Source: DASVDK01 sp036562265 [NCBI: Thermodesulfobacteriota bacterium] (GTDB taxonomy: Bacteria > DASVDK01). Taken from it: a DNA stretch of 5,366 bases. Numbering within the stretch: the first letter of the stretch is position 1; the number at the start of each line of letters is the position of its first letter. Below are positions 1 through 5,316 of this stretch, piece by piece. Made by a program: the position numbers and the translations under genes. The notes under the pieces were generated by a model. It was given only the letters and a program-made list of their open reading frames with translations, did not search any database and had not been told where the DNA came from. The stretch lies in assembly GCA_036562265.1 (NCBI GenBank), contig DATCKS010000464.1:1-5366 (forward strand), written 5' to 3'.

Positions 1-1
1 C

Positions 2-85
2 CTCGCGGGACCGCCGCCGCGCCCGCCGCTCCCGGCAGGCGCGGCGCTCTACCCCGTACTGACCCGCGACTACTACGGGTGGTGA
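2..85 (+). CDS. C-terminal end of an unidentified protein (partial, enters from left edge)
   Basis: Frame 2 is open from the left edge to a TGA at 83-85 and gives 27 residues ending in LYPVLTRDYYGW. Twenty-four of the 27 codons end in G or C, and the residue mix looks like a real protein tail rather than the Arg/Pro-rich shadow frames common in this DNA. The opposite strand here reads repeated TAG triplets, as expected for the antisense of Tyr codons. I do not recognise the family. It would be convergent with the sulfatase-like gene, and the two 3' ends overlap at 73-85. With so short a fragment, chance openness in GC-rich DNA remains a real alternative. Confidence 0.4.
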   Translation, partial: LAGPPPRPPLPAGAALYPVLTRDYYGW

Positions 86-2589
86 GCGGCGGCCACCTCC
101 TGCCGCCTGAGCGCCCTCGCGTCGACGACGAGTTCCCCCGCCGTGCCGTCGGCGAGGACGGCGAAGATGCGAACGCCGTCGCGGCTCGCCTCGTCGAGGA
201 GGTGCGGCGGGATCTGCGAGCCGAAGCCGGCCTCGAGGAACGTCGACGCCCCGTACCGCTCGACGACGTCCTGCCTCGCGCGGCCGGTTCCGGTCGCAAG
301 CCCGAAGGTGCGCCCCACGAAGACGAGCACGGCGGCGGCCGGCCGCTCGCGTGCGAGATCGACCGCCCAGCCTCTCACCACGAGCCCGCCGTCTCGGACA
401 AGGAGGCGCGCCTGTCCGACCTCGACGCCGGGCCGGATCGGGATGACCCGGCCGTCCGAGCGGACGATCCGCTCCCCGTCCGGGCCGGCGACGAGGGTGT
501 AGGTGCGCGGCGCGCCTCCCCCGACCGTCGCGAGCCGAGGCGCATCGACCGGACCCGACAGCGCGAACACCTCGACCTCGTTGTAGCCGTCCCTGAGGGC
601 CGATTCCGGCACCAGCGCGGCGAACCGGGCACGTCCCCGGCGCCAGGGAGCGGTCCGGGTGACGGCCGCGACCCGCCCGTTGAGCGCCACCGCCAGATGC
701 GCCACGTCGCCGTCCGGTCGCGCTCCGACGAGCCACCCTTTCACGTTCGCTGGCACCTCGCGGCCGTCCGTGTCGACCTCGGCGTAGGCGTCCGCCCAGT
801 CGAGTTCCATGGCGAGGTCCACCCGGTCGGCCACCGGGAGCTCGTCGACCGGGCGGCCGATCAGCGACGCGTACCGGCCGATCCGGTAGAGCGGGCCGAG
901 GTCCTCCCCGGTCCCGAAGAGGCGGTGAACCCTCGCGACGCTCGCGGCGACGCCCGGGACCGTCCGGCCGAAGACGAGGGGCGGCTCGCCGTGCGGGTGC
1001 ATGACGACCTTGCGCGACGGCTCCGGGATCGCGGGGTCGACGGCCGAGACGCCGTCGACCGGCCAGGGGAGGTCGACGTCGAGCAGGTCGGCGATCGTCG
1101 GCAGGATGTCCACCGACTGGACGTTGCGGTCGCTCACGACGCCGCGAGGCCCTCTCGGGGCCTTGATGATGAGCGGAACCATCATGATGTCCGCGGCGTT
1201 GCTCCGCGTGGGGAGCCGGCGATACTCGCCCGGCCGGAAGCTGACCCCGTGGTCCGCCGTCACGACGATCAGCGCGCGCTCGTAGAGCCCCTCGCGCTTG
1301 AGTCGCTCGACGACCCGCCCCACCGCACGGTCCACCGCGCCGACCTGCAGGAGGTAGCGCTGGAGGGCCTGCGTCACGAGCCACTCGTCGTCCGCCCAGA
1401 CGCCCTGGATCGGATCGAGCCCTTCGACGTGCCCGGCGTCGCCCCGTCCCTCGTACATGCGGCCCGAGGGGAAATAGCGCCACGGCACGTGCGGCAGCAC
1501 CAGATGCGCGAAGAAGAGGCCCGGCTCCGGCCCGTCGGTGATCCGCGCCATCCACTCCTCGAGCCGGTCGAGCGGGGCCATCCGCTCGTCCTTCTCGCGC
1601 TTCCCCTCCCCGGCGAAACTTCCCCACGCGGCCGTCACGGCCGGCAGGTCCCGCGTGAGGTCCGGGGTGAGCGCGACGTGCAGGAAGACGACGCCGAGGT
1701 CGGTCGCGAGCGCCTCGAGGCGCCGCCAGAGCGGCTGCCGTCTGATCTCGCAGAGCGCCTCGGGGCAGAGGCTCGAGATCGTCTCGAGCACCTCGAGGCG
1801 ATACGTGGCGCCGAGGAGCGTGAAGAGGTTCTGCGGGTGGGTCGCGTAGTTCGGCAGCGCCTTCCCCGAGGGGTCCGGCATGCGGCCGGTGAGGATCGCG
1901 GGCACGGCCTGAGTCGTTGCCGGACTCACGGTCGTCGCGTTCCGGAACCAGATGCCGTCGCGGGCCAGCGCCGCGAGGTTCGGATACCGGCCGGCGTCGA
2001 GCCGCCCCGTCTCGTCGGTGAGCCAGGCCCCGTTGAACTCGTCGAAGACGAGCATCACGATCGGGTCGGTCGCCTGGACTCTCGGGAACCCGGCGAGCGG
2101 GTCGGGCGGCTCGAGGATCAGGGACCTCACCTGGAACAGGAACAGCCCGGCGAAGAGCAGAGGGGTCGGCGCCAGGACGAGACACACCTGCGCGAGCGGC
2201 GCCGCGCGGCGGAGGGCGAGGGGAAGGACGACGCCGACGACGAGGGCGGCCGTGACGGTGACCGGCACGGGGAGCGCCGGGAGCCGCGAGAGCCCCTGGA
2301 GCGCGAGGACGGTCCCGAGGAGCCCGACCAGGAGCGCGTGCAGGAGGGCCTGCGCGCGGGCGTGGAGCCGACGGGCCCCTTCCTCGAGCAGGACGAGGAG
2401 ACCAGGCGCGACGAACGCGAGGATCACCGCCAGGAGCACGAGGTCGATCGGCTCGGAACGTCGGACCGCGAAGAAGGTCGGCTGCCGGCCGAGCAGGTCG
2501 AAGAGCGGTTGCGCGACCGCGAAGTTCCAGAGGACCAGGAGCTGGGCGGCATCGGCGAGCCGGCTCCTCGAAGTCGTCGTCGTGCTCAT
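73..2589 (-). CDS. Membrane-anchored alkaline-phosphatase-superfamily (sulfatase-like) hydrolase/transferase
   Basis: Predicted inner-membrane enzyme with its catalytic domain outside the cytoplasm. Numbering here starts at the alternative GTG at 2610; subtract 7 for the ATG chosen. Hydrophobic segments at about 23-40 (weak), 55-76, 88-106, 114-133 and 139-160 make five membrane helices, the arrangement of LtaS and EptA phospho-transferases. The catalytic domain spans about 180-530: strand PIVMLVFDEF gives metal ligands D190/E191, SPATTQAVPAILTGR holds the likely nucleophile, LPHVPW contains H374, and VVTADHG gives D453/H454. Aligned backwards from the shared LTGR, Thr232 falls where sulfatases have the formylglycine Cys, and there is no CxPxR. 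This favours phosphatase or phospho-group transferase chemistry over sulfatase, despite the usual family name. Cys282 and Cys287 (LCPEALC) could form a disulfide. About 240 C-terminal residues hold two related beta-rich units. ATG at 2589 was chosen because GAGG lies 5 bases upstream; GTG at 2610 is possible. It is the last gene of the minus-strand operon seen here. The true substrate is unknown. Confidence 0.93.
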   Translation of the reverse strand: MSTTTTSRSRLADAAQLLVLWNFAVAQPLFDLLGRQPTFFAVRRSEPIDLVLLAVILAFVAPGLLVLLEEGARRLHARAQALLHALLVGLLGTVLALQGLSRLPALPVPVTVTAALVVGVVLPLALRRAAPLAQVCLVLAPTPLLFAGLFLFQVRSLILEPPDPLAGFPRVQATDPIVMLVFDEFNGAWLTDETGRLDAGRYPNLAALARDGIWFRNATTVSPATTQAVPAILTGRMPDPSGKALPNYATHPQNLFTLLGATYRLEVLETISSLCPEALCEIRRQPLWRRLEALATDLGVVFLHVALTPDLTRDLPAVTAAWGSFAGEGKREKDERMAPLDRLEEWMARITDGPEPGLFFAHLVLPHVPWRYFPSGRMYEGRGDAGHVEGLDPIQGVWADDEWLVTQALQRYLLQVGAVDRAVGRVVERLKREGLYERALIVVTADHGVSFRPGEYRRLPTRSNAADIMMVPLIIKAPRGPRGVVSDRNVQSVDILPTIADLLDVDLPWPVDGVSAVDPAIPEPSRKVVMHPHGEPPLVFGRTVPGVAASVARVHRLFGTGEDLGPLYRIGRYASLIGRPVDELPVADRVDLAMELDWADAYAEVDTDGREVPANVKGWLVGARPDGDVAHLAVALNGRVAAVTRTAPWRRGRARFAALVPESALRDGYNEVEVFALSGPVDAPRLATVGGGAPRTYTLVAGPDGERIVRSDGRVIPIRPGVEVGQARLLVRDGGLVVRGWAVDLARERPAAAVLVFVGRTFGLATGTGRARQDVVERYGASTFLEAGFGSQIPPHLLDEASRDGVRIFAVLADGTAGELVVDARALRRQEVAAAHHP

Positions 2590-2591
2590 CG

Positions 2592-2598
2592 CCTCCTC
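2592..2598 (-). promoter_or_regulatory. Shine-Dalgarno for the sulfatase-like gene (decides between two starts)
   Basis: On the minus strand GAGGAGG ends 2 bases before ATG 2589; its first GAGG ends 5 bases before. A second candidate, GGTGGAG at 2619-2625, lies 8 bases before the in-frame GTG at 2610, which would add seven residues (MWTREEA). I prefer the ATG because it is the commoner start codon and begins at the MSTTTTSRSR segment ahead of the first membrane helix. The spacing argument for the GTG is also good, so this remains open. Confidence 0.5.
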
Positions 2599-2654
2599 AC
2601 GCGTCCACACGTCCGGTTCTCCACCCGCGCGCCACGTGGTCGATCGTGCGCGCC

Positions 2655-2674
2655 GGGGCCCGGCGTCGGGCCCC
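2655..2674 (-). other. Perfect GC-only stem-loop between methyltransferase and sulfatase-like genes
   Basis: GGGGCCCG and CGGGCCCC form a perfect 8-bp inverted repeat around a 4-base loop, starting 11 bases past the methyltransferase stop codon and ending 44 to 65 bases before the next start. No U-tract follows in the minus-strand direction, so it is not a canonical intrinsic terminator. It sits in the longest intergenic gap of the operon. It could protect the upstream mRNA's 3' end, attenuate transcription, or act as a U-tract-independent terminator. The 75-96 base spacer shows no convincing promoter by eye. Confidence 0.55.
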
Positions 2675-2685
2675 CTCGCCTCTCG

Positions 2686-4077
2686 TCATCGCGGCCGGCC
2701 GCGCCCGTAGTAGAGGATGCGCGTCCCCGAGGCGAGGACCTCCCGGCCCTCGACCGCGAACCTGGCCTCGAGCGCCCGCTCGAACGGCTCGACGTCGTAG
2801 TCCCGGTAGCGGTCGTCCTTGTTCATGAGGAGACGGCCGACCATCGGGTCGTCGCGGGTCACGAACTCGATCACGACGTCGCCGCCGAGGTCGGCGAGCC
2901 AGTCGACGAACTCCGCGAGCGGCACGTTGCCGCCGAGGACGACGTGGTGGATCAACGCCAGGCAGAGGACGAGGTCCGGCCGGCCTCGCGCGGCGAGCGG
3001 CTTGCGCTCGAGGCCGCGCCACCCGAGCCCGGGCGACGCGTCGATCAGGTCCACGACGAGCGGCAGGATGCGCGGGTGCCCCTCCCCCCGGAGCGCCTGG
3101 TAGAGGCGCTCGACGGCCAGGTGGTCGCTGTCCATGGCGACGACGTACGCCCCCGTCTCCGCGGCGAGCCGCGCGAACCGGCCGGTGTTGCAGCCGAGAT
3201 CCCAGACGAGCCGGCGAGGGCGAGCGCGCGCCGCCTCCGACACGAACGCCGCCTTGCGGGCATGGTCGGGCTCGGTGTAGCCGTGCGTCCGGTCGTACTC
3301 GGACCAGGTCGAGCGCGACCGGCGCCAGGTGAGCCCGCGGATCGTCCGCGCGAGCCGGCGGACGTTGGCCGCGATCGCCGCCCGGCTGAACTCGGCCGAC
3401 CGGATCGCATCGCGCACCGCAGCGCCGCCGAAGCGCGCCTGGAGCCGCGCCTGGAGCCACACGTGGAGGAGCACGGCCGGCCGGAGGCGGTCGAGCCCGC
3501 CGAGGAGGCGGGAGGCGACCTCGGCCGGGATGCCGTCGAGGCGCCCGCGGAGCCAGGGCTGGAACGGCACGTCCCGGAGCGCCTGCACGAGGAGCGGGTA
3601 GAGGAACATCTCGCAGAACTGCCGGTACCCCACCCAGACGTCGCCCGGCTCGAGCCGCTCGAAGGAGCCGACGTCGATGAAGACCGGGCGAGCCCCGACC
3701 CACTGGACGTTGTAGGGCGAGGCGTCCTTGAGCGTCATCCCCTCGTCCAGCGCCTCGAGGAGGAGGTCGAGGTGGAGGAGCGCCGCGTCCCTGAGCATCC
3801 CGAAGGACCACTCGTACGGGTACGACACGAAGGGGACCGCCTCGTGTCGCAGGACCGCCCGCCAGTCGCCCGGCGGCAGCCCGGCGGCGGCGCCGGCCAT
3901 CCGTTCGGTCCGGACGACCCGCCCCTCGCGCACGGCGCGCGCGAAGAACGCCGTCGCCTCGAGCGCCTCCCAGTCGGCCAGCGCCTCGGGGCCGAGGGCG
4001 CGCAGGATCCGGTCCCCCTCGACGAGGACCCGGCTCGACCGATCCCGGTACGAGCCGGGCTCGAACGCGACGGTCAC
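2686..4077 (-). CDS. Kinase-like domain fused to class I SAM-dependent methyltransferase
   Basis: A 463-residue cytoplasmic protein with no membrane helix. The C-terminal part (about 260-463) is a Rossmann methyltransferase: motif I is VWDLGCNTGRFA (about 291-302), the acidic end of strand 2 is VVAMDSD (312-318), a motif IV-like region is DLVLCLALIHHVV (368-380), and a late strand is GDVVIEFV (399-406). The N-terminal half (about 10-250) is not ordinary for a methyltransferase. LKDASPYNV (116-124) matches the kinase catalytic loop, with D118, P121 and N123 in HRDxKPxN spacing, and IDVG (134-137) matches DFG 12 residues after N123. R26 (ILRAL) and E37/E40 may stand in for the N-lobe Lys and helix-C Glu. 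Start: GTG at 4077 lies one base after the small gene's TGA, with AGG about 7 bases upstream, suggesting translational coupling. Overall it resembles proteins I recall, without certainty, being annotated as NoeA-like methyltransferases. Methyl acceptor unknown; a glycan is inferred from context. Confidence 0.92.
   Translation of the reverse strand: MTVAFEPGSYRDRSSRVLVEGDRILRALGPEALADWEALEATAFFARAVREGRVVRTERMAGAAAGLPPGDWRAVLRHEAVPFVSYPYEWSFGMLRDAALLHLDLLLEALDEGMTLKDASPYNVQWVGARPVFIDVGSFERLEPGDVWVGYRQFCEMFLYPLLVQALRDVPFQPWLRGRLDGIPAEVASRLLGGLDRLRPAVLLHVWLQARLQARFGGAAVRDAIRSAEFSRAAIAANVRRLARTIRGLTWRRSRSTWSEYDRTHGYTEPDHARKAAFVSEAARARPRRLVWDLGCNTGRFARLAAETGAYVVAMDSDHLAVERLYQALRGEGHPRILPLVVDLIDASPGLGWRGLERKPLAARGRPDLVLCLALIHHVVLGGNVPLAEFVDWLADLGGDVVIEFVTRDDPMVGRLLMNKDDRYRDYDVEPFERALEARFAVEGREVLASGTRILYYGRGRPR
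3435..3458 (-). repeat. Two tandem copies of a 12-bp unit inside the methyltransferase gene
   Basis: GCGCCTGGAGCC occurs twice back to back on the plus strand. On the coding strand it encodes the duplicated LQARLQAR (about residues 208-215) in a predicted helix of the linker between the kinase-like and methyltransferase parts. Being in frame, it is best explained as a small in-frame slippage duplication or as helix codon coincidence. Confidence 0.6.
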
Positions 4078-4078
4078 G

Positions 4079-4288
4079 TCAGGGCCTGCCCTTCTCCGTG
4101 CGGCCGAGGCCGACGAGCGCCTTGAGCTTCTGCCAGTAGAGCTTCACCAGCACGACGAAACCGGCCACGCCCCCCAGGACGAGTTGCAGGAGCATGCTGC
4201 CGCTGCCCGGATCGAGGTAGGCGTGCGCCGGCGCCGCCGTCAGGACGACGAGGAGTCCGGCCGCCGCGATCGTGGTGGTTCTCCGCAT
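4079..4288 (-). CDS. Small secreted/membrane protein with YLDPGSGS motif (69 aa)
   Basis: Unknown function. MRRTTTIAAAGLLVVLTAAPAHA is a textbook signal peptide: Arg-Arg n-region, hydrophobic core, and AHA cleavage signal at 23/24. Cleavage would leave a mature protein starting YLDPGSGSMLLQ, followed by a hydrophobic helix at about 32-50 and a basic tail (KLYWQKLKALVGLGRTEKGRP). The mature product would be about 46 residues with its N-terminus outside and its positive tail in the cytoplasm. The ATG at 4288 is supported by GGAGGG at 4297-4302, 8 bases upstream. The frame stays open further upstream, but that part is an Arg/Pro-rich shadow of the transferase gene and should not be joined to it. 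The gene lies 23 bases after the transferase stop and its own stop is one base from the methyltransferase start, so it is squarely in the operon. I recall similar AYLDPGTGS-type small hypothetical proteins near surface-polysaccharide genes, but cannot verify this here. Confidence 0.85.
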   Translation of the reverse strand: MRRTTTIAAAGLLVVLTAAPAHAYLDPGSGSMLLQLVLGGVAGFVVLVKLYWQKLKALVGLGRTEKGRP

Positions 4289-4311: not shown

Positions 4312-5316
4312 TCACAGGGTCATGTCGATCCGTTTGAGCCAGAGCGCGAGCCCGCACGCCGTAAGGAGGAGCACGAGGAGCAGCACGAGCGCCCCCTCCT
4401 CGGTCGGCACGTACGTGAGCGCGACGCCGCTTGCGCCGAGGACGACGCCGGCGGCGTAGTTGGCCGCCACGGTCTGCCGCGTGGTGAGGCGCCACTTCCT
4501 GAGGCGCAGGGCGACGTGGTCGGGGCTCCCCAGCATGACCGGCAACCCGCGCATCTGGCGGACGTGCATCACGAACAGCATGTCGAAGAGCGGCACGCCG
4601 AGAATGACGACCGGCGCGAGGGCCGCGGTGACGGTCCGCTCGGTGACGCTGTTGTTGATGGCGAGGGCGCCGAGGAGCAGCCCCACGAGCTGGCTCCCCG
4701 TGTCGCCGAGGTAGATGCGCGCCGGCTCGGCGTTGTAGCGCAGGAAGCCGACCAGGGCGCCGGCCAGCGCGAGGCACATGATGGAGGGGACCGGCCGGCC
4801 GGCCGCCGTCGTGAGGGCGAACATGGCGACCGCGGCCACGGCCCCCACCCCGGCCGAGAGGCCGTCCATCACGTCGATCAGGTTGAAGGCGTTCGTCGTC
4901 GCGAGGAGCCAGAGGAGCGTGAGCGGCAGGGCGAGCCAGATCGGGACGAAGGCGAGCTTGACGTAGACCCCGGAGCGGATCAGCACCGCGCAGGCCAGCG
5001 TCTGGCCGGCGAGCTTCACCCAGGGCGAGAGCGCCCCCAGGTCGTCGACGAGGCCGAAGACCACGATCAGGCCCGAGGCGAGCAGGAGGCCCAGGACCTC
5101 GTGGCCCCGGCTGAGGTCGATCGTCAGCGCGACCGAGACGAGGAACGCCACGTAGACGGCGAGCCCGCCGAGGTACGGCACCGGCTCGCGCTGGCGCTTG
5201 AGGCGGCCGTCGGGTCGATCGACGAAGCCGATCCGGATCGCCGCCTCGCGCACCCGCGGCACGAGCCAGAGCGAGAGCGCGAGCGCGATGGCGAAGGCGA
5301 GGACCGCGCGCGTCAT
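4312..5316 (-). CDS. WecA/TagO/MraY-family polyprenyl-phosphate sugar-1-phosphate transferase
   Basis: Integral membrane enzyme of 334 residues with about 11 hydrophobic segments. The family transfers a sugar-1-phosphate (GlcNAc-1-P in WecA and TagO) from a UDP-sugar to undecaprenyl phosphate on the cytoplasmic face, the first step in making a lipid-linked glycan. The family motifs appear in order: PYLGGLAV (47-54), GLVDDLGALSPWVKLAGQ with D91/D92 (88-105), NAFNLIDVMDGLSAG with N142, N145, D148 and D151 (142-156), IYLGDTGS with D205 (201-208), and PLFD (242-245). The final cytoplasmic loop reads GSPDHVALRL with a single His267 instead of the multi-His motif of WecA or MraY. Length is slightly below WecA and TagO. 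Start ATG 5316 overlaps the upstream gene's TGA (ATGA); no clear Shine-Dalgarno precedes it, so coupled translation is likely. MraY itself is less likely, since no peptidoglycan genes are beside it. The sugar specificity cannot be read from the sequence. Confidence 0.95.
   Translation of the reverse strand: MTRAVLAFAIALALSLWLVPRVREAAIRIGFVDRPDGRLKRQREPVPYLGGLAVYVAFLVSVALTIDLSRGHEVLGLLLASGLIVVFGLVDDLGALSPWVKLAGQTLACAVLIRSGVYVKLAFVPIWLALPLTLLWLLATTNAFNLIDVMDGLSAGVGAVAAVAMFALTTAAGRPVPSIMCLALAGALVGFLRYNAEPARIYLGDTGSQLVGLLLGALAINNSVTERTVTAALAPVVILGVPLFDMLFVMHVRQMRGLPVMLGSPDHVALRLRKWRLTTRQTVAANYAAGVVLGASGVALTYVPTEEGALVLLLVLLLTACGLALWLKRIDMTL

What the first reader, a model, noticed from the sequence alone, without database searches (positions are those of the whole stretch)
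2686..4077. Kinase-like catalytic motifs fused in front of a methyltransferase: a possible reversed-order analogue of WbdD
Residues 116-124 (LKDASPYNV) carry Asp, Pro and Asn at the spacing of the protein-kinase HRDxKPxN loop, and IDVG follows 12 residues after the Asn, about where kinases have DFG. The three Mg/ATP-handling residues (D118, N123, D135) are all present; only the HRD His is replaced (Leu116). A methyltransferase domain follows. In E. coli O9a, WbdD joins a methyltransferase to a kinase and caps the O-polysaccharide chain with methyl phosphate. Here the domain order is reversed, in an operon that begins lipid-linked glycan synthesis. Motifs are seen; the fold and the capping role are inferred.
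Basis: partly seen in the sequence, partly recalled or inferred. Interest (0 to 1): 0.65.

Follow-up and report, generated by a model that had tools for sequence, protein, structure and literature searches.

The report
NoeA-type kinase-methyltransferase enzyme
This gene encodes a two-part enzyme of the known but uncharacterised NoeA family, a kinase-like half followed by a methyltransferase half, which may put a methylated phosphate on a cell-surface or secreted molecule, much as an E. coli enzyme with the halves in the opposite order does.

Summary
The motifs are real. The 463-aa gene (minus strand, 2686-4077) has D118, N123 and D135 invariant in 82 of 82 aligned homologues. They are the only invariant Asp/Asn among 16 in residues 1-252 (76 rows). 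AlphaFold models are confident (pLDDT 93.1 whole, 90.8 for residues 1-252), and the 50 PDB rows listed for the N-terminal domain in each of two searches are all kinase-fold chains. The kinase reading holds at the level of fold.

It is not a new architecture. The gene is a homologue of rhizobial NoeA (35-37% identity), and a 2022 Legionella kinome paper already predicted kinase plus methyltransferase for this family (PMC9758233).

What I add: the methyltransferase half carries, in family-invariant form, residues WbdD needs to methylate a phosphate (H132, H133, R203 match H377, H378, R453). A 69-aa YLDPGSGS membrane protein lies directly upstream in 80 of 87 loci, and often a Thr-nucleophile alkaline-phosphatase-superfamily membrane enzyme downstream. 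The WecA-like neighbour was found only in this window.

Methyl-phosphate formation is a reasoned prediction; capping of an O-polysaccharide is not shown.

The parts
2686..4077 (-). NoeA-family kinase-methyltransferase, 463 aa; kinase-fold domain about residues 1-250, class I SAM methyltransferase about 255-463
3673..3732 (-). kinase catalytic and metal-binding region, residues 116-135 (D118, N123, D135)
   Evidence: 82 of 82 homologues identical at the three positions; aligns with WbdD D351, N356, D369 in a non-significant match
2719..2949 (-). methyltransferase residues 377-453: H377, H378 and R453, matching WbdD H132, H133, R203
   Evidence: H377/H378 81 of 82 (one gapped row), R453 82 of 82; alignment with WbdD
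4079..4288 (-). 69-aa small membrane protein with YLDPGSGS motif, one base upstream of the kinase-methyltransferase start
   Evidence: homologue directly upstream on the same strand in 80 of 87 loci, Tyr and Asp of the motif 80 of 80; hydropathy
73..2610 (-). alkaline-phosphatase-superfamily ('sulfatase') membrane enzyme, NoeB counterpart, 845 aa, four N-terminal hydrophobic segments, Thr at the nucleophile position
   Evidence: Pfam Sulfatase 5.9e-25; neighbour counts and T232; hydropathy
4312..5316 (-). WecA/MraY-type glycosyl transferase family 4, upstream in the same direction; found in this window only
   Evidence: Pfam Glycos_transf_4 1.5e-33; no homologue in the other 86 loci

Best explanation
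The protein is a member of the NoeA (Lani_1194) family: an N-terminal kinase-fold domain with an intact Mg-ATP site joined to a C-terminal SAM-dependent methyltransferase. Shown here by computation: family membership, predicted fold, invariance of the active-site residues, gene neighbourhood. Inferred: the kinase half moves the gamma-phosphate of ATP to a hydroxyl of a membrane-linked saccharide or other envelope or secreted molecule, and the methyltransferase half then methylates that phosphate (methyl phosphate), as WbdD does with its domains in the opposite order. The small membrane protein encoded one base upstream probably anchors or recruits the enzyme to the membrane, and the alkaline-phosphatase-superfamily enzyme, where present, acts outside the cytoplasm on the modified product (phosphotransfer or phosphodiester cleavage).
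For: NoeA homology over 97% of the query and a small gene - noeA - noeB order in Ensifer, Novosphingobium and Rhizobium plasmids. R26, D118, N123, D135 82 of 82. Kinase fold: 50 of 50 listed rows in each structure search, best VIA-align Z 10.8, rmsd 3.6, 188 aligned. Best profile match among PDB sequences is WbdD (E 3.7e-4). WbdD mutants H132A, H133A and R203A still phosphorylate but do not methylate (PMC3482155 section 6); the matching H377, H378 and R453 are invariant apart from one gapped row, and R203 pairs with R453 in the global profile alignment. Top structural match of the whole model is the methylphosphate capping enzyme (6dcc, Z 17.8, tied within 1 with others; WbdD Z 16.2). Small protein adjacent in 80 of 87.
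Against: I found no measured activity for any member in the papers seen. The kinase-domain sequence match to WbdD is not significant (-1.0 bits; hhalign probability 1.7%), and the N-terminal profile alone finds no kinase among PDB sequences. A tRNA methyltransferase scores almost as well as WbdD (E 5.8e-4). Domain order differs from WbdD. In NodS and RebM the two His are two His or two Tyr (PMC3482155), so only the Arg discriminates, and its alignment lies in a low-confidence C-terminal stretch. Methyltransferase matches are mostly enzymes with other substrates. The alkaline-phosphatase-superfamily gene was not found in 13 of 87 loci, among them the closest relative. Flanks vary and include housekeeping genes, and Micromonospora (17 of 80 loci; Gram-positive, without LPS: recalled) carries the module, so an O-antigen role is not general.
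Confidence: 0.55

Rival explanations
1. The two halves are both active but act on separate positions: the kinase phosphorylates one site and the methyltransferase O-methylates a sugar hydroxyl, so no methyl phosphate is formed.
For: Class I methyltransferases of this fold act on many substrates (one search lists NodS, CmoA, TehB, NNMT and others near the top); WbdD of E. coli O8 methylates a hydroxyl (PMC3482155, passage).
Against: WbdD's three phosphate-site residues are matched by invariant residues here; the paper states that the O8 enzyme lacks them.
Confidence: 0.22
2. The N-terminal domain is a pseudokinase or an ATP-binding regulatory or scaffold domain for the methyltransferase, or transfers AMP or another group rather than phosphate.
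For: The HRD His is replaced and the DFG Gly varies; PMC9758233 found no ion-pair Glu in this family; some kinase-like folds do other chemistry (recalled).
Against: All three Mg/ATP residues plus R26 are invariant across phyla, unusual for a pseudokinase.
Confidence: 0.15
3. It is a WbdD-type O-polysaccharide chain terminator working with the WecA-like neighbour.
For: Same two activities predicted; WecA-like gene upstream in the window.
Against: No homologue of that gene in the held flanks of the other 86 loci; none of the window's four scanned genes is a Wzm/Wzt-type transporter, although the window is only 5.4 kb; the module occurs in Micromonospora, not known for O-antigen (recalled); no C-terminal extension after the methyltransferase.
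Confidence: 0.08

Closest known systems
NoeA of Sinorhizobium meliloti / Lani_1194 of Legionella anisa (kinase-methyltransferase family, PMC9758233)
   Same: Same two domains with the kinase part first; 35-37% identity to rhizobial members over 97% in the rows listed; same atypical motifs; same small gene - noeA - noeB order in rhizobia
   Different: No nodL in the window; the AP-superfamily partner is longer (845 aa here, 553 aa for NoeB in L081) and a WecA-like gene lies upstream. Lani_1194 itself was not compared by sequence
WbdD of E. coli O9a
   Same: Methyltransferase plus kinase; catalytic D351/N356/D369 and phosphate-methylating H132/H133/R203 have counterparts
   Different: Domain order reversed; no C-terminal coiled-coil region; no significant sequence match of the kinase part; different gene neighbourhood (for the E. 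coli HS cluster)
ORF6 (N-terminal part) of the Klebsiella O7 cluster (PMC11231755)
   Same: Bifunctional methyltransferase-kinase shown in vitro to make methyl phosphate; its kinase domain is not recognisable by sequence (passages)
   Different: Methyltransferase first; fused to glycosyltransferases; not compared here by sequence
Lcin_0519 family (PMC9758233)
   Same: Kinase plus methyltransferase, predicted envelope role
   Different: Described there as a separate family, remotely related to WbdD and linked to Wzm/Wzt; not compared here by sequence

Membership tests
NoeA / Lani_1194 kinase-methyltransferase family | Full-length sequence homology to NoeA | tested here: met
   tblastn 35-37% identity over 97% of the query in the listed Sinorhizobium, Ensifer and Rhizobium rows, E 1e-65 to 2e-69
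NoeA / Lani_1194 kinase-methyltransferase family | N-terminal kinase fold with conserved Asp, Asn, Asp | tested here: met
   published description
NoeA / Lani_1194 kinase-methyltransferase family | Arg in place of the ATP-binding Lys (R38 of Lani_1194) | tested here: inconclusive
   R26 is 82 of 82 and lies in an early strand, but its equivalence to R38 was not aligned
NoeA / Lani_1194 kinase-methyltransferase family | C-terminal class I methyltransferase | tested here: met
NoeA / Lani_1194 kinase-methyltransferase family | Alkaline-phosphatase-fold neighbour (NoeB) | tested here: met
   window 73-2610 minus strand; found within the locus in 68 of 87 loci, adjacent downstream in 46
WbdD | Methyltransferase domain first, kinase second | tested here: not met
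   order is kinase then methyltransferase
WbdD | Catalytic and Mg residues D351, N356, D369 | tested here: met
   aligned with D118, N123, D135, in a match that is itself not significant
WbdD | Phosphate-methylation residues H132, H133, R203 | tested here: met
   H377, H378, R453; the R203 pairing rests on a low-confidence stretch and on matching end points
WbdD | Fourth essential methyltransferase residue Y16 | tested here: inconclusive
   Y261 is 82 of 82 and lies near, but the alignments do not fix the pairing
WbdD | C-terminal coiled-coil extension recruiting a polymerase | tested here: not met
   protein ends with the methyltransferase fold; no helix after the last strand in the model; no coiled-coil predictor was run
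WbdD | Makes methyl phosphate on the chain end | not testable with these tools
   needs enzymology
protein-kinase-like fold | Structural match of the isolated domain to kinases | tested here: met
   50 of 50 listed rows in each search are kinase-fold chains, including RNase L's kinase-like region

The most novel reading that the evidence does not exclude
The NoeA family is a widespread methyl-phosphate-forming system, independent of WbdD's arrangement: a membrane-recruited kinase-methyltransferase, a dedicated YLDPGSGS membrane peptide, and often an outward-facing Thr-type alkaline-phosphatase-superfamily enzyme that moves or trims the methyl-phosphorylated group. In rhizobia it would make an as yet unrecognised methyl-phosphate decoration that decides which Medicago hosts are nodulated.
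Probability: 0.25. Interest if true: 0.68.

Novelty: new member of a known kind. Interest (0 to 1): 0.42.

Why it matters
noeA and noeB have been cited as host-range genes since 1995, and the papers seen here give no measured chemistry for them. The kinase fold was predicted in 2022; adding a phosphate-methyltransferase signature and a near-constant small membrane partner turns 'function unknown' into one defined reaction that can be tested with ATP, SAM and 31P NMR, and would apply to a family that the 2022 paper finds in 1,201 species outside Legionella (PMC9758233).

Tried and rejected
Own-genome search: no genome is held for the window. Single-sequence search of PDB chains: best row a glycosyltransferase at E 8.3e-4, taken as chance; WbdD at 0.055. 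Pfam on the N-terminal domain: 0 families for the window; 2 chance-like families among 76 members. PDB sequence profile of the N-terminal domain alone: one irrelevant row at E 1.5. Whole-model structure searches were filled by methyltransferases, so the N-terminal domain was folded alone. hhalign of the kinase halves: probability 1.7% local, no useful global alignment. A literature search for the YLDPG motif or small membrane proteins gave 889 papers, of which the 5 shown lack the motif. A search for methyl-phosphate terminators gave one paper, on antibodies.

Considered and rejected: a chance motif (invariance and fold speak against it); a glycan-synthesis operon as the general context (flanks are mixed). 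The GT4 search covered only the held flanks, many of them cut short by contig ends. The NCBIfam hit of the 69-aa protein to a beta-lactamase model (E 0.0052, 16 bits against a cut-off of 640) is taken as chance. Not in print, as far as searched: no held paper joins NoeA with 'phosphate methyltransferase'. Subscription papers, including the 1995 noeA paper, were not read.

Full report
OBSERVATION. The finding's coordinates hold one ORF of interest, on the minus strand: 463 aa with a GTG start at 4077. The quoted motifs are at the quoted residues. A methyltransferase domain follows (one of four Pfam models reaches its curated cut-off). Four genes of the window read in the same direction: WecA/MraY-type glycosyl transferase family 4 (4312-5316), a 69-aa membrane protein (4079-4288), the protein in question, and an alkaline-phosphatase-superfamily 'sulfatase' (73-2610). 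Gaps are 23, 1 and 75 bases.

IDENTITY. tblastn against plasmids found 65 records, 57 of them Sinorhizobium; in the 40 rows listed the Sinorhizobium and Ensifer matches are at about 35% identity over 97% of the query, and those that carry a name are called noeA or NoeA. Other genera are named as SAM-dependent methyltransferase or hypothetical protein. A scan of genome contigs gave 82 relatives, of which the best 80 were kept, spread over Acidobacteria, Planctomycetes, Actinobacteria (17 of 80 Micromonospora), Alphaproteobacteria and others. The closest is a Vicinamibacterales metagenome-assembled genome at 63% (L001). The window's organism is not known; no genome is held for it.

CONSERVATION. 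Of 87 loci (80, six plasmid stretches, the window), 82 gave a full-length protein. R26, D118, N123 and D135 are identical in 82 of 82. Among the 16 Asp/Asn of residues 1-252, only D118, N123 and D135 are invariant in the 76-row alignment. P121 and G137 are not conserved. The rows are related to each other and not independent.

FOLD. AlphaFold2 on the 76-row alignments gave mean pLDDT 93.1 for the whole protein and 90.8 for residues 1-252. The 50 rows listed by Foldseek for the N-terminal domain are all kinase-fold chains (best E 7.2e-6, PknG; 348 matches at E 0.001 or better, of which 50 are shown), and so are the 50 listed by VIA-align 2 (best Z 10.8, PKR; rmsd 3.6; 188 aligned). TM-scores normalised by the query are modest (0.31-0.45 in the rows shown), so this is a distant, atypical kinase. 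The C-terminal half matches class I methyltransferases; the top row is the methylphosphate capping enzyme (Z 17.8), tied with NodS (17.7) and others; WbdD has Z 16.2 over 183 residues, 255-463 against 11-213.

WBDD COMPARISON. A profile of the family searched against PDB sequences has WbdD as best match (E 3.7e-4), with a tRNA methyltransferase close behind (5.8e-4). The methyltransferase part aligns 292-416 (profile positions) with WbdD 66-180, placing H377-H378 on the WbdD His pair; hhalign of the two methyltransferase parts gives probability 96.7% and the same pairing. A second, non-significant stretch (-1.0 bits) aligns 114-151 with WbdD 357-395 in the numbering of that chain, placing D118, N123 and D135 on the WbdD catalytic and Mg residues. 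I fetched the WbdD-like gene of E. coli HS from its O9-type cluster, annotated only as a methyltransferase, and found the published residue numbers at the expected letters: Y16, H132, H133, R203, D351, N356, D369 among others. In the global profile alignment R203 pairs with R453, in a stretch of low alignment confidence but in agreement with the end points of the structural match. PMC3482155 (sections 6 and 7 read, passages elsewhere; [quoted passage not shown] H377 and H378 are present in 81 of 82 (one gapped row, L068) and R453 in 82 of 82. This makes phosphate the best-supported methyl acceptor. It is inference from alignment, not a measurement.

NEIGHBOURS. A homologue of the 69-aa protein lies directly upstream on the same strand (within 260 bases) in 80 of 87 loci; of the other seven, three have no room, in two the only hit lies elsewhere (L022 on the other strand, L084 downstream), two have none. 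In the 80, the Tyr and Asp of the YLDPGSGS motif are invariant. The window's copy has a signal-like hydrophobic N-terminus, a second hydrophobic segment and a basic tail (and reading of the sequence). The alkaline-phosphatase-superfamily gene is adjacent downstream on the same strand in 46 of 87, elsewhere in the locus in 22 (at least seven of these are downstream on the same strand but with a mechanically over-extended or cut ORF), untestable for lack of sequence in 6 and not found in 13, among them the closest relative L001. Its nucleophile position is Thr in 43 and Ser in 3 of 46, never Cys, which speaks for a phosphotransferase or phosphodiesterase rather than a Cys-type formylglycine sulfatase (class rule recalled). 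The window's glycosyl transferase has no homologue in the other 86 loci as held. Pfam scans of 30 neighbouring ORFs from eight loci gave six alkaline-phosphatase-superfamily genes, nine ORFs without a match (some may be spurious) and otherwise mixed flanks: acyl-CoA dehydrogenase, NAD synthase, arginase, a two-component system and an ABC transporter in some; a glycosyl-hydrolase-109-like protein, glycosyltransferase family 9, O-antigen ligase and a YkcB-like mannosyltransferase in others.

LITERATURE. PMC9758233 (section 8 read in full, passages of section 9; figures seen only as legends) already predicts that Lani_1194 and NoeA join a kinase and a methyltransferase, with Arg in place of the ATP Lys, conserved neighbours and a NoeB of alkaline-phosphatase fold. 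By its legend it draws Lani_1194 and WbdD in one domain figure, and it calls the separate Lcin_0519 family, not this one, reminiscent of WbdD. 'Methyl phosphate' does not occur in it, with space (listing) or hyphen, and 'histidine' only in a reference. PMC11231755 (passages) shows that another methyltransferase-kinase with an unrecognisable kinase domain makes methyl phosphate in vitro. PMC4053727 (passages) suggests that a truncated noeA may explain poor nodulation by one S. meliloti strain. PMC9048898 (passages) says that NoeA and NoeB are hypothesised to modify the Nod factor. The 1995 noeA paper was seen only as a reference.

VERDICT. As a discovery it is a new member of a published family.

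Noticed in passing
4079-4288 (-): 69-aa membrane protein with Y-[LIF]-D-[PA]-G-x-G-S motif, no convincing Pfam or NCBIfam family, directly upstream of the kinase-methyltransferase in 80 of 87 loci; found more often than the alkaline-phosphatase-superfamily partner.
   Followed up: partly
73-2610 (-): 'Sulfatase' with Thr, not Cys, at the nucleophile position and a C-terminal region of about 320 residues beyond the sulfatase match with no Pfam hit.
   Followed up: partly
1-4125 (+): A 1374-codon open frame runs antisense to the coding genes; presumably a by-product of high G+C coding sequence rather than a gene (not tested).
   Followed up: no
L038:6425-7078: In Methyloligella halotolerans a 60KD_IMP (YidC/Oxa1-like) protein follows the kinase-methyltransferase directly, and two alkaline-phosphatase-superfamily genes lie upstream on the other strand.
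   Followed up: no
L084:9396-9626: In Deltaproteobacteria bacterium Smac51 the small YLDPG-type gene lies downstream rather than upstream of the kinase-methyltransferase.
   Followed up: no
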